Position numbers and translations under genes: made by a program
Part shown: positions 46,801-52,800 of the stretch, in pieces
Numbering within the stretch: position 1 is the stretch's first letter
Layout of the letters: every line of letters begins with the position of its first letter
Source of the DNA: Aquila chrysaetos chrysaetos
Lineage: Eukaryota; Chordata; Aves; Accipitriformes; Accipitridae
Reading direction: 5' to 3'
DNA: 64,000 bases
NCBI RefSeq assembly: GCF_900496995.4
Contig: NC_044027.1
Span: 7,960,743-8,024,742 of the forward strand
The notes under the pieces: model-generated
Database searches by the model: none
Told to the model about the DNA's origin: nothing
What the model saw: the letters and a program-made list of their open reading frames with translations, nothing else

Positions 46801-49800
46801 AGCTCGCCCCGGTCCTTGGCTGCCCATGCCAGCGTGAAGCCGGGTCCTGGCAAGGAGCAAGGCAGAGGGGTCAGAGCGGCCCGCCAGCATCAGGGACACA
46901 GCATGGCCCCACAGCTGGCCCTGCCTGGCATGCAGCAATGTGGGACAGTGGCAGGGCACTGCCACATGCTGTCACAACACTGGGTGCCTGGCAGGTGGGC
47001 ATCTCCATCCCTGCCTGCACAGGCAGCGGGGGTCAGGCAGGACACAGCCTACCTGCTTGGTTGCTGAAGCGGGTCTCCATGGAGCTGGGCTCACTGCTGC
47101 TGAGTGCCTCCAGGCGCCGGCGCAGCGACTCCAGCTCCTCCTCCAGCCCCGGGTGCTGCGGGTCGAAGAGGCTGCTCTGTTCCACCACTTCACTGAGGTG
47201 CTCCAGGAGCTGTGTCACCCTGCAAGAGCCCAGCACCACCATGGCTTCAGGGACAGGGACAGAGGGATGGGGACACCTTTTATAGAGCTCTTGGGGGGAC
47301 AAACCCCTCGGGTGCACAGGGCAGCAGTGCTGCCTGCCATGGGGCACCGCAGCCCCAGGAGCTGCCCTTGCCTGCACACTGAATCCACTATGCCAGTGGT
47401 GCAGAGGAGAGCCCAAAAGCCTTGAGGCGTCCCTGGGGGCCACCGCCATCCTCCTCCCAGCACCAGGCACATGGGAGCCCACGGAGGAAACGGGCTGAGA
47501 TGTCCCCTGCACCCCAGGGACACAGCGCTCTGCACCCAAGCACTCTGGGGGACACAGGCTTGTGCCTTGTCCCCAGCAGGGCAGTGCCAGAGTGGGAAGG
47601 AGCAGGCTGCATGCAGAAGCGTGCAGGGCAGGAGGAGGAAGCGCATGGCGAGGGCACGACTCACGTGGAGTTGGAGTACTGCAGGAAGCCGAACTCGTCG
47701 CGCTGGCCGTCGGGGCACAGGGACTGCATGACGGGCAGGATCCCGGCTGAGGTGAGCGGGGCCGCCGTGTAGAAAGCTGGAGCCAGCGAGAGAGCGCAGA
47801 AGAGGCCGGGGAAGGTGCGGGCAGGGAGGGAGGAGAGGCAGGGGAGGCAGGAGGGAAGCAGGGGGCCACCGGAGAGACAGACACTCAGTTCAGAGAAGCA
47901 CACGCTGGACCTTGCAAGCCCCGTGGGAGGTTGGCGGCCAAGGGCAGAAGTCTGCAGCTATCCCACCATGGCTGTCCCCGGCTGGTGGCCCCTTGGGGCT
48001 GTGGGCAGCTCCTGCCACCCTGGCTCCTGCCCTCTTGCCGCTGCCCGCTCCCCCCTGGGTGACAGGTCCCTCCTGCCCCAGGATGATGCTGATTTTTGCC
48101 GCTTGCCCCAGGATGGCTGCCAACCTCCCCCGGCCTCTTGGCCCCTCTTGTTAGTAACCTCAGAGGCACCGCCGGATCTCCAGAGGAAGAAGAGGAGGAA
48201 GAATACGACAGGGAAAATAGAGTTGTCACCTGCAGCTCCCCAAGCCCCCAGCCTCCCCTCCGCCTGGCTGCCCCGAAGCGCGGCTGCTGGAGGTGGGTGG
48301 AAATGGAGACACGGTGCAGGGGAAATGGAAGAAATGAGGAGCAGCAAGGGGATGGCAAACCTTCCCTCCTCCACCGGCACTGAGCCATCCTCCCTGCCAG
48401 GGTCTTTCCATGTCCTTCTTGGGGGCAGGGCAAGCCCAGAAGGGCCCTGCCCAAAGGGGACCAGAGGTTGTCACTGGGCAACATAAGGCAGGGACCCTGC
48501 TCTCACTACCCCAGCCAGTGACCCCGTGGTTAGAGGCGGGTCAGTGCTGTTAGCACAGCCGCAATGGGCAGGGGCTGGTGAAGATAGGCTTCTGGCAGGG
48601 ACAAGGGACAGGCCGGGGCAGGGACGGGCATAGCATGGGATGGGCTAGCAGCCTGATGGAGTAGTGGGACAGATGGTGGTGGCCACACCAGGCTTTGGTG
48701 ACAAAGCCAGCGCATGGGTGGCATCTTGCTGGCCTCTAGGCTCCTAGTAGTGCCATGTCCCAGCTCGTCTCAGTTCCAAGGGGCCAGAACAGTGACCTGA
48801 CGCAGGGGTGGGAGCCATCTCCAGCCCCTTGGGGACCAGCCAGGGCAAGACAGGCAAGACTGGGTGACCACAGGCCACCACATGGGTGCCAGCACCCAGC
48901 AGGGCCTACCCCAGGAGGGAGGTGAGAAGAATCACAGAATCATTTAGGTTGGAAAAGACCTTTAAGATCATTGAGTCCAACCATTAAGAAGGGGTAGGAC
49001 AAGCCTCCACCTGGCCTTGAGAGCCCTCTGCAGCCCAAGGGACCAGGGACATTGCCACTGGCAGCCCCGGCACCTGGGGAACCCAGCACTGCTAACCCCA
49101 TGGGGACACCACCAACTCAGTGGGAAGAACACCACCAGGGGCTGGTCCTGGCTCGGCAGCCCCCAGGGAGGAGCAGGCAGGGGCCACGTTGTGCTGCCTA
49201 AGCTCATCTTCACCAGCCGCAGAGGAAGACAATGGGGTTACAGAGGTGTGGATTAGGCCAGAGTGAGCTGATCCAAACTGGGCTCTTTCTCCCCAAAATA
49301 TGTAGCTGGCACAGGCAGGGGAAGGGGGGAGGTGCCCACCCGCCCCACCAACTTACAGACTGGCGCATGCAGTAGAGGCATGGAGGGCAGGCGGGCAGGG
49401 GAGATGGTGGGAAAGAAAAAGAAAACGTGAGCAAACAGAAAGAAAAACCAAACTGAAAAACCACACAACACAGAGCACACGTCAGCGCCAGGGCAGGAAC
49501 CAGGGCAGTGTCCACCACCGCCCACAGCCAGACCCGTGCTCGCAGCTGGGCTCTCCCTCGCCGGCACGCGCTGAAACACAGGCTTAGACCATCATTACAC
49601 CAGGTCACCACTGGTGCCGGCTCCCAGCATCTGACCCTGGCCCCACCGCACCACCCGCGCAAGGGCACCCGCTCAGGCGGGCATCCCACGATCACCTCGA
49701 TGCCACATGGAGCCTTGGCAAGCCAACAGCTCTACTCCACTGCTCCTCCCAGCGGCACAGCCCATGGGGACAGGCACCCGTAGCTCCAGCTGCACATCTC

Positions 49801-52800
49801 CAGGATCCCCCAGCTCCAGTCCCATCCATTTGTCACCTTGCCAGGGCCCCAGAGCCCCCCCACAGCCAGGCACGGGGCTCCACGCAGTGCATTTCCCCCC
49901 CCCAGCATCACGAGGAGCTGGGGAGCCCTTCCCAGTGCTGCCTTGGCTGCTCCTTGAGCACTCGGGGGAGCCTGTGGCTGTCCCAGGACGATGGAGCTCC
50001 ATCTCCCCTTTCCCCCCACAGAATGTCCCTGCTGATGGCAGCCACAGGCTGGTTGGTGCTGCCACCCCCAGGGGAGCCCCCCCACTGCTGGGACTGACTC
50101 TGGCTCTCTGACCCCCCTGTGTCTGCCCCACCAGCCCCAGGCTGCAGCCCCTGCCCAGCACTATGTCCCCCAAAAGGCCCCTCTGGGTCACCGCCAGCTG
50201 CCGCAGCCCCCCCACCCCCAGGCTGTCCCCGGGGGGCTGGAGCAGCTCTCCAGAGCCTCGGGGTGGTCCCAAGTGCAGATGCCCCAGACACCACCCTACT
50301 GGCACTCACCTTCCTTCACAGGGATGGTTGGCTTCTTCTGCCGCAGCCCCAGGAGGATGAAGAAGAGCACCAGGGGGATGAAGATCTCAAAGGCCAGCAC
50401 CCACTGGGGATGAGACAAAGCAAAGGGATCGTGATGCCTGGGGACAGGACCCAGCTACCAAGGAGGAGTGTGGGCAGGATGGGGGTCCCTGGGGCACCAG
50501 TGCAGTGCAGCACCATGCCCATGCCTTTCAGGTGGCTGGTGGCACCATCACAGCTCAGCCAGAGGAAAACAGGTCCCTGGGCACCTGAGGATCTCCTGCT
50601 TGCCCCTGCCTGCACGTTGCCTGCTCCATCCTGCCTGGGGGCACCTTGGGACAGGAGAAGGTACCACAGAGGGGATGGATCCCTCCTCCAGCAACGCAAA
50701 CAGGGTGCTGGGGCTCAAGACCAGCCCCAAAGGGCCACCACAGCTGGGGATGTCCAGGGGAGATGACCCCAAGTCCTTAAGGCTGGCAAAGAGCTGCAGG
50801 CCTCCATCCTGGCAGTGCCCTCACAGCCTGTAGCTGCCCAGCATGATGTCCCCCTGCCATCCGTGCCACCACTGGGTCCCACCCACGGGGCTATGCAGGG
50901 GGCAGACCCTGACACCACTGGGGCAAGGTTCGGTTCAGCCAGGCCCTGGCACTAGCTCCAGGTGCAACTGGGGGACAGCATGGGGGGTCCTGGCACCCCC
51001 TCTGTGCCCTCCCAGAAGGCTACAGCTGCACGGGATTTCCACTGGTGGCATACAGCAAATCACAGCAAATCCCCCGGAATCCCTGACCCCAATCGCGCAG
51101 GCAGCCCAGCCTGGGCTCCATGCCCAGAGGCCCTGGGGATGGGCATCAGCACCTTCAGCCACCAACAGGAGCAGACACCCAGCATGCCCAGCACGCTGCC
51201 AGTGCAGCCGCTGCCTGTTTGCACCAGGCGTGCCCAGGCCATGTCACAGCCCCATTGCCCCTGCTGCCGAGTGGAGGGGAACTACTGTAGGTGGGGAAAC
51301 CGAGGCACAGGGTGAGGTGAGCCAACCTCAGTTCGCTTCAGGGCCAGATCAGACCCTGGGCCCTGCTGCCACCACGGGCAGGGGAAGCCACAGCTCCGCT
51401 GCCAGAAAGGTGCCCACTATAGTGCCAGCACCTCCCACGAGGCTCCCACACCAGCCCAATCACCGGCAGTGACCAGGTGCCAGAGGGGCTGGGAAGAGAA
51501 AGAGAGCTTTAATACAAAAGGGGCTGCCTGGTAGGATGCAGCCAGCAGCAGGTGAACAGGGTCAGACCCTCCTGTCTCCAACAGCATCACCTCCACACTG
51601 GCCTCACCCACGGGCTGCAAATGCTTTGCCAACAAGTCACTGCAGCCCAGCAAACGGCGGTGAGCAGAGGGACCCCCACACCCGGACCCCCGCTGGCACA
51701 TGGCTGCTGCACTCCTGCCAACTCCATGGTTGGCAGGGCTGTGGGATGGGCATGGCTGCACCCATGGGTGTCCCCCAGTGCTACCCCCCCCCCAAACCCA
51801 GAGCTGCTGATTTTGGGGGAGGCAAAGACTGGAGGAAAAAGGGCTGCAGGGGATGGGGACAGCAGATGCCCCAGGAGCAGTGCCAGGGCTGGGGGAATCC
51901 CCATCTTTCTGGCACCACCAGTCCCAGGCACAGTCCCTGGTGTCACTGTCCCTGTACAAGGGTGGTGGCAAGGAACACCCTGGCCCTCTCTGCCCACCCT
52001 GTGGCTCCTGCCCTGCCACTTGCTGCCTGCACCCGCCCCCCCGCCTGTTTACCAGGCACACAATCAGGCCTCTGTGCCCAGGCGCCTGTCTGACTGTCCC
52101 CCCACACCCACACCAGGCTGTACCAGCCTCCCTTAGGGACTGTTGGGTCCTTGGTGGCAACAGAAGGGACCTGCTTGTTGTTATTTTTTTAAAGCAGGTC
52201 ATTGACCTTTTGGTCATCTCCTTCCACAGAGACATCCCCTGTCCCTGACCCCTCCTGCACTGCCACATGTCACAGTGCTAGGGCAGGCTGTCCCCCCACC
52301 ACCAGCACCCACGTTCACATGGCAATGGGCAGACACAGCAGCAGAGCGGGGCTCACCAGCCCGTGCCTCTGGGACTGATCCTGCCCTTTGGCCTCCAGGG
52401 CTGCCCCTGCAGGGGCGTCCCAGGCATGGGGTGGGTCCAGGGCTGCCTCACACCCACAGTGGGGCAGAGGCACCAGCATGCAGCAGGGAGAAGGGGAAGG
52501 GAGGCTGTCCCAAGGGAGCCTTCGCCCCCCGGCATGGCACCCACCAGGGGCACCCAACACTGGCACAGCCTGGGTACTGTGGGGGACATTTTGGGATTGT
52601 GAGATAGCAAGAGGGGGAAAGGTCAGGATCCGGGCAGCTGGGAGGGAAATGCTGGGAGAAGGAGAAAGACAAGGAGAGGGGAAGGGCCAGTCCCTGCCAG
52701 CAGTTGGCCATGCCCTGCACCGACCAGTGTGGTCTGTCCTGTCCGCTCACCCACTCCCTTCCTCACTCCTTCCTTGGGAAGGGCTCTCACACATATGACT

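What the first reader, a model, noticed from the sequence alone, without database searches (positions are those of the whole stretch)
49351..49453. Candidate 3-nt microexon in ABCA2 intron 2 that switches Ala to Val-Ser beside TM1
Seen: on the minus strand the triplet TCT lies between CGCCAG and a perfect GTAAGT donor. Upstream there is no AG for about 92 nt, the tract is pyrimidine-rich, and TGC triplets sit 4 and 8 nt before the CAG, with a third further up. Exon 2 ends with one base (G) and exon 3 begins CT, so skipping gives VKE-A-FYT and inclusion gives VKE-VS-FYT, in frame. Known: 3-27 nt neural microexons controlled by SRRM4 (nSR100) use UGC motifs just before the acceptor and often sit next to structured domains; ABCA2 is a brain-rich protein. 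From memory, mammalian ABCA2 sequences carry either A or VS at exactly this place, which a microexon would explain. Inference: the microexon is real, conserved and neural-regulated. Standard ORF and gene prediction cannot find a 3-nt exon, so it is likely missing from annotations.
Basis: partly seen in the sequence, partly recalled or inferred. Interest (0 to 1): 0.9.

Follow-up and report, generated by a model that had tools for sequence, protein, structure and literature searches.

The report
A one-codon microexon in ABCA2
A bird ABCA2 gene carries a three-letter optional exon that swaps one amino acid for two next to the first membrane helix; the same swap appears in protein records from sharks to mammals, so it is very probably real and old, although whether nerve cells control it remains untested.

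Summary
TCT lies at window 49359-49357 (minus strand), between CAG and GTAAGT in intron 2 of ABCA2. It is the only YAG-NNN-GTRAGT in 64 kb on both strands, and of nine AG-NNN-GT sites in the intron the only one that can encode Val-Ser. The decisive evidence is independent of the window: public ABCA2 proteins carry VKE-A-FYT or VKE-VS-FYT at this junction. 22 of 159 junction-spanning records fetched have exactly VS, from 21 species: chicken, three ducks, 15 mammals, a carp, the whale shark. So the microexon is real, alternative and probably as old as jawed vertebrates. 'Missing from annotations' is half wrong: of the 146 records, 19 of 52 NCBI-type ones have VS, 0 of 91 UniRef-only ones do. Its surroundings resemble SRRM3/4 (eMIC) targets: 91-nt AG-free zone, five UGCs in 45 nt, long pyrimidine tract, weak acceptor. 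Neural regulation is likely but unproven; no RNA data were available. No held paper has ABCA2 together with microexon or micro-exon. A new member of a known kind.

The parts
50310..50403 (-). ABCA2 exon 2 (TM1; ends with one base G of the split codon)
47777..50309 (-). ABCA2 intron 2, 2533 nt, phase 1
49428..49428 (-). Branch-point-like A in TGCTCAC, 69 nt upstream of the microexon; the only yUnAy match in the 120 nt examined
   Evidence: motif only; inferred
49362..49452 (-). AG-free zone of 91 nt, pyrimidine-rich, with three TTCTTT motifs
49365..49397 (-). Cluster of five TGC motifs (starting at 49397, 49389, 49380, 49371, 49367), including TGCATG at 49371-49366
49360..49361 (-). Acceptor AG of the microexon (GCGCCAG; weak)
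49357..49359 (-). 3-nt microexon TCT; inclusion changes Ala54 to Val-Ser
49351..49356 (-). Donor GTAAGT of the microexon
47665..47776 (-). ABCA2 exon 3 (start of first extracellular domain; begins CT of the split codon)

Best explanation
TCT at 49359-49357 is a genuine, alternatively included 3-nt cassette exon of ABCA2. Skipping joins exon 2 (..GAA G) to exon 3 (CT TTC..) and gives VKE-A-FYT. Inclusion gives G TC|T CT, that is VKE-VS-FYT, one residue longer, at the residue equivalent to Cys54 of ABCA1/4/7, directly after TM1 where the first extracellular domain begins. Shown: the sequence, the frame, the uniqueness of the site, and both protein forms in public records (VS in 21 species). Inferred mechanism: the exon is too short for normal exon definition. 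A distant branch point, a long AG-free pyrimidine tract (a likely PTBP1 site) and a weak acceptor keep it skipped by default; SRRM3/4 acting through the UGC cluster promotes use of the acceptor, and the strong GTAAGT donor is then spliced to exon 3. The confidence given is for a real, alternatively spliced 3-nt exon; for SRRM3/4-driven neural inclusion I would say about 0.65.
For: VS is the one recurrent insertion: searches gave 146 distinct proteins, of which 125 have A, 19 VS, 1 GES, 1 AA. One search gave 21 more: 3 VS, 8 A, 1 AVS (lamprey), 1 misjoined, 8 not reaching exon 2. VS needs a T-N-T insert given G|...|CT; among nine AG-NNN-GT sites in the window's intron 2 only TCT fits, and it also scores best. 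Both forms are recorded in one species: Anas platyrhynchos (P0019 A, P0040 VS), Camelus bactrianus (P0054/P0055 A, P0087 VS), C. ferus (P0155 A, P0088 VS), Sinocyclocheilus anshuiensis (P0095/P0097 A, P0131 VS). Cis layout: AG-free zone 91 nt (2nd of 43); 5 TGC in 45 nt (the 42 others have 0-4; 69 of 4448 overlapping intron windows have 5 or more); acceptor score below 41 of 42; donor hexamer above all 42. This resembles the eMIC-exon architecture in PMC8797185 (passages). Two loci over the cut-off for PF15230 (SRRM_C) exist in the genome.
Against: No RNA reads, tissue data or DNA of other species could be examined. NCBI models might partly inherit VS by protein alignment rather than from their own transcripts, though each genome should still supply T-N-T between AG and GT. 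0 of 91 UniRef-only and 0 of 3 lgn records have VS. The 9-nt donor score (TCT|GTAAGT) exceeds only 10 of 42; the splice matrices were built from the same 42 sites, which favours those sites. A review says that microexons in general have shorter flanking introns and stronger splice sites on both sides (PMC8911335, passage); here intron 2 is the second longest of 42 modelled and the acceptor is weak. TGC and AG-free-zone enrichment was measured within one gene.
Confidence: 0.94

Rival explanations
1. The exon is real but is not an SRRM3/4 neural exon: it is controlled mainly by RBFOX and PTBP1, or follows a glial, lineage or developmental pattern.
For: TGCATG lies at 49371-49366, the only one in intron 2, and three TTCTTT motifs lie in the pyrimidine tract. 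Introns flanking microexons are enriched in RBFOX1, PTBP1 and SRRM4 motifs (PMC8911335, passages). ABCA2 is strong in oligodendrocytes (recalled).
Against: TGCATG is not rare: 16 in 24315 nt of modelled ABCA2 introns. Five UGCs, a weak acceptor and a long AG-free zone fit the eMIC layout best.
Confidence: 0.3
2. Chance decoy: a 3-nt pseudo-exon that is never spliced, and the VS records have another cause.
For: The bare 12-mer occurs 312 times in the genome, and some YAG-NNN-GTRAGT arises in 2.7% of resampled introns.
Against: VS is recorded at exactly this junction in 21 species and the best-scoring site in the intron encodes exactly VS.
Confidence: 0.03
3. The true exon is 96 nt long, from the acceptor TTTTTCAG ending at 49453 to the same donor; it is in frame and open ([33 protein letters not shown]).
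For: Open and in frame, behind a pyrimidine-rich CAG.
Against: None of 167 fetched proteins holds VWFFF or PLLHAPV. The frame is mostly a pyrimidine tract, and luck suffices for an open frame there.
Confidence: 0.02
4. VS arises by a shifted splice site of exon 2 or exon 3 (NAGNAG acceptor or donor slip), not by a separate exon.
For: Tandem-site shifts are a common cause of one-residue isoforms (recalled); single AA and GES records exist.
Against: Here a 3-nt donor slip adds GTG and a 3-nt acceptor shift adds CAG; neither yields VS, which needs T-N-T.
Confidence: 0.01

Closest known systems
Alternatively spliced 3-bp exon of NCAM (mouse, rat)
   Same: A 3-nt alternative exon in a vertebrate gene (cited in PMC7392893, passage).
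   Different: Different gene; lies in the muscle-specific region of NCAM (recalled).
RPS24 3-nt exon a
   Same: A 3-nt cassette exon with cell-type-specific inclusion, shown by single-cell PCR (PMC8563012, one passage).
   Different: Epithelial rather than neural; in a ribosomal protein.
SRRM3/4 (eMIC)-dependent neural microexons
   Same: Long AG-free zone, UGCs near the acceptor, long pyrimidine tract, weak 3' splice site (PMC8797185, passages).
   Different: SRRM dependence and neural inclusion untested here.
homothorax 3-bp micro-exon (Drosophila)
   Same: A conserved 3-nt alternative exon (PMC7392893, passages).
   Different: Spliced from within another exon; an insect transcription factor.

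Membership tests
Vertebrate microexon (3-27 nt) | 3-27 nt exon between AG and GT, in frame | tested here: met
   CAG-TCT-GTAAGT, 3 nt; A becomes VS in frame. Range 3-27 nt: PMC7935315, abstract passage.
Vertebrate microexon (3-27 nt) | Alternatively included | tested here: met
   A and VS records in the same species: Anas, two camels, one carp. Annotation-level evidence, not reads.
Vertebrate microexon (3-27 nt) | Evolutionary conservation | tested here: met
   VS in 22 of 159 junction-spanning records fetched, 21 species, shark to mammal. DNA conservation could not be tested.
[quoted passage not shown]
   5 TGC in the last 45 nt; 42 other acceptors have 0-4.
SRRM3/4 (eMIC)-dependent neural microexon | Long AG exclusion zone and long pyrimidine tract | tested here: met
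   91 nt, 2nd of 43; pyrimidine content 0.79 over 90 nt, 2nd of 43.
SRRM3/4 (eMIC)-dependent neural microexon | Weak 3' splice site | tested here: met
   Acceptor score below 41 of 42, matrix built from those same 42.
SRRM3/4 (eMIC)-dependent neural microexon | Strong branch point | tested here: inconclusive
   One yUnAy match (CTCAC) 69 nt upstream.
SRRM3/4 (eMIC)-dependent neural microexon | Included in neurons, lost without SRRM3/4 | not testable with these tools
   No RNA data. The genome has two SRRM_C loci.
Recursive (zero-length exon) splice site | Acceptor AG directly followed by donor GT | tested here: not met
   Three bases lie between AG and GT, and matching VS records exist.

The most novel reading that the evidence does not exclude
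A single-codon, SRRM3/4-controlled neural switch, unchanged in its protein outcome (A to VS) since the jawed-vertebrate ancestor or, if the lamprey AVS reflects the same exon, since the vertebrate ancestor. It lengthens the TM1-to-extracellular-domain hinge of a brain lipid transporter by one residue, at the residue equivalent to Cys54 of ABCA1/4/7.
Probability: 0.5. Interest if true: 0.68.

Novelty: new member of a known kind. Interest (0 to 1): 0.5.

Why it matters
It is the smallest whole-codon exon that preserves frame, and it appears to have kept the same two-residue outcome for over 400 million years (divergence time recalled). Standard aligners lose exons this small (STAR declines below 10 nt; PMC7821500, passage), so work on ABCA2 may have mixed two proteins. 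It gives a clean test of how a 3-nt exon is recognised and of whether a one-residue change at the TM1/extracellular hinge alters lipid handling in brain.

Tried and rejected
Rejected: chance decoy, 96-nt exon, tandem splice-site shift, recursive splice site (see rivals and membership rows).

Led nowhere or gave little: a 68-aa PDB search (0 hits at 1e-3; a 106-aa query with a looser cut-off worked). Literature: ABCA2 with isoform terms (8,091 papers hold 3 of 5 terms, the 20 listed have no ABCA2); five terms on ABCA2, SRRM4/nSR100 and microexons (190 papers hold two or more, 25 listed, none of those with ABCA2); 3-nt exon phrases (8 papers); ABCA2 with splice variant (39 papers, 15 listed, no title on this exon; passages of PMC8717091, show no ABCA2 splice form); ABCA2 with SRRM4 (3 papers, listing only, one or two mentions of each term). 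PMC7935315 and PMC12626424 hold no 'UGC', nor does PMC8911335; the UGC rule was found in PMC8797185. Viral contigs: 33 pattern matches, no relative. AlphaFold of P0148 (528 aa, VS form, 17-row alignment): mean pLDDT 44, 34 at the site, so nothing reliable. Rfam: no match in the window at gathering scores. Tandem repeats: two short ones, irrelevant.

Paralogue test: in two related genes of the same genome, which I take for ABCA4-like (L009) and ABCA7-like (L010), the intron splits codon 54 at the same phase. Each intron stretch has one AG-NNN-GT, a weak one (GAG-CTG-GTTGCC; GAG-TGT-GTGCGT, the latter also of T-N-T form), and no YAG-NNN-GTRAGT. The ABCA1 search did not complete.

Full report
What is there. 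On the minus strand, exon 2 of ABCA2 (50403-50310) ends ...CCT GTG AAG GAA G and exon 3 (47776-47665) begins CT TTC TAC. Between them lies a 2533-nt intron. At 49359-49357 stands TCT, preceded by GCATGCGCCAG and followed by GTAAGT. Direct joining gives VKE-A-FYT; inclusion gives VKE-VS-FYT. The window lies in a 1.23-Gb genome. Its ABCA2 N-terminal stretch (106 residues, joined by eye) is identical to that of two Phalacrocorax species, and a stretch resembling an avian CR1 tail lies in the same intron (recognised from memory), so this is very probably a bird.

Is it more than chance? YAG-NNN-GTRAGT occurs once in the 64-kb window, both strands. Of nine AG-NNN-GT sites in intron 2 this one has the best combined score and is the only one of form T-N-T. 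In 5000 order-1 Markov resamplings of the intron a YAG-NNN-GTRAGT appears in 2.7% and a YAG-TNT-GTRAGT in 0.16%. Genome-wide the exact 12-mer occurs 312 times against 229 for the reversed control, so the core by itself is weak evidence.

Independent evidence. Three protein searches fetched 167 distinct proteins (listed rows only: 120 of 205, 120 of 189, 21 of 21; the lists overlap). Of the 146 distinct ones from the first two, 125 have A at the junction, 19 VS, 1 GES, 1 AA. Of 21 from the third, 3 have VS, 8 A, 1 AVS (lamprey), 1 is misjoined and 8 do not reach exon 2. So 22 of 159 junction-spanning records have exactly VS, from 21 species: Gallus (XP_015135098.1, isoform X5; two records), Anas, Aythya, Oxyura; Camelus bactrianus and C. 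ferus, Condylura, Equus przewalskii, Colobus, Sagmatias, Meriones, Trichechus, Manis, two Phyllostomus, Marmota, Carlito, Galeopterus, Oryx; Sinocyclocheilus; Rhincodon (names). The second and third searches were run with a VS query, so the ratio says nothing about inclusion level. Because the split codon is G|CT, Val-Ser requires a T-N-T insert; in the window a 3-nt donor slip (GTG) or a 3-nt acceptor shift (CAG) cannot make it. The window's only suitable site therefore predicts what the databases show.

Annotation. Of the 146 records, 19 of 52 from ncbi/nr/eukprot have VS, against 0 of 91 UniRef-only and 0 of 3 lgn records. So the exon is in NCBI models but not in the UniRef-only ones. Clusters at 90% identity hide members, so absence of a species (human included) means nothing here. 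STAR loses sensitivity below 10 nt, whereas VAST-TOOLS detects microexons of 3 nt or longer and MicroExonator all sizes (PMC7821500, passages).

Surroundings. Against 42 modelled ABCA2 introns (some boundaries uncertain, one junction unresolved), the microexon has the second-longest AG-free zone (91 nt; others 10-105), the most TGCs in the last 45 nt (5; others 0-4; 69 of 4448 overlapping intron windows have 5 or more), the second-highest pyrimidine content over 90 nt (0.79), an acceptor weaker than 41 of 42, and a donor hexamer stronger than all 42, though with the exon bases counted the donor exceeds only 10 of 42 (matrices built from those same 42 sites). A branch-point-like TGCTCAC sits 69 nt upstream; TGCATG overlaps the two nearest UGCs and is the only one in intron 2 (16 in 24315 nt of all modelled introns). 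PMC8797185 (passages) describes eMIC-dependent exons of flies by very weak 3' splice sites, weak 5' splice sites, long AG exclusion zones, UGC close to the 3' splice site, longer pyrimidine tracts with alternating UCUC, and strong branch points, with an unusually strong downstream branch point; it says that all but the last and the weak 5' splice site also hold for mammalian eMIC targets. The match is good on the points tested, except that UCUC itself occurs only once in the AG-free zone. Against it, PMC8911335 (passage) says microexons in general have shorter flanking introns and stronger splice sites on both sides; here intron 2 is the second longest of the 42 modelled and the acceptor is weak. 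The genome has two SRRM_C loci, as expected for SRRM3 and SRRM4 (assignment from memory).

Protein position. Residue 54 of ABCA2 (A, or V of VS) aligns with Cys54 of ABCA1, ABCA4 and ABCA7, just after TM1 (residue number counted on the alignments). In ABCA4 this cysteine is disulfide-bonded (recalled). Two paralogues in the same genome, which I take for ABCA4-like and ABCA7-like, split the same codon at the same phase; each intron stretch has a single weak AG-NNN-GT and no YAG-NNN-GTRAGT. Of the three genes tested only ABCA2 has a convincing site; ABCA1 was not tested. An AlphaFold model was uninformative.

Mechanism. Shown: anatomy, frame, both isoforms in records. Inferred: default skipping through a weak acceptor with a distant branch point and a PTBP1-type tract; SRRM3/4 action through the UGC cluster; then use of the strong donor. 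RBFOX control is a serious rival. No RNA evidence was available.

Literature. No held paper has ABCA2 with microexon or micro-exon; three have ABCA2 with SRRM4, incidental by their listings. Supplementary tables and most subscription journals were not searchable, so event tables such as VastDB may already list it. 3-nt exons are known in NCAM, RPS24 and homothorax (passages).

Verdict. Real with high confidence, ancient and alternative; partly annotated already; neural control plausible but untested. A new member of a known kind.

Noticed in passing
P0159 (Petromyzon marinus ABCA2-like): Lamprey record reads VNE-AVS-YYS. G|CAGTNT|CT would give exactly A-V-S, as if the microexon were used with an acceptor 3 nt upstream. 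This would push the exon back to the vertebrate ancestor; the DNA was not seen.
   Followed up: partly
window 49452-49357 (-): From the upstream acceptor TTTTTCAG to the microexon donor lies a 96-nt in-frame open stretch with many hydrophobic residues; none of 167 fetched proteins holds its motifs VWFFF or PLLHAPV.
   Followed up: yes
window about 48983-48927 (-): Stretch resembling the 3' tail of an avian CR1 element (recalled) inside intron 2, between the microexon and exon 3.
   Followed up: no
P0041 (Anas) and P0043 (Anser): UniRef-only records with GES and AA at the same junction, probably gene-model artefacts (exon 2 read into its donor; possible NAGNAG acceptor in goose).
   Followed up: partly
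L009 and L010 (ABCA4-like and ABCA7-like genes of the same genome, my assignment): The intron that splits codon 54 has the same phase in these paralogues as in ABCA2, so it probably predates the gene duplications, while a convincing microexon is seen only in ABCA2 of the three. L010 has a weak GAG-TGT-GTGCGT, also of T-N-T form.
   Followed up: yes
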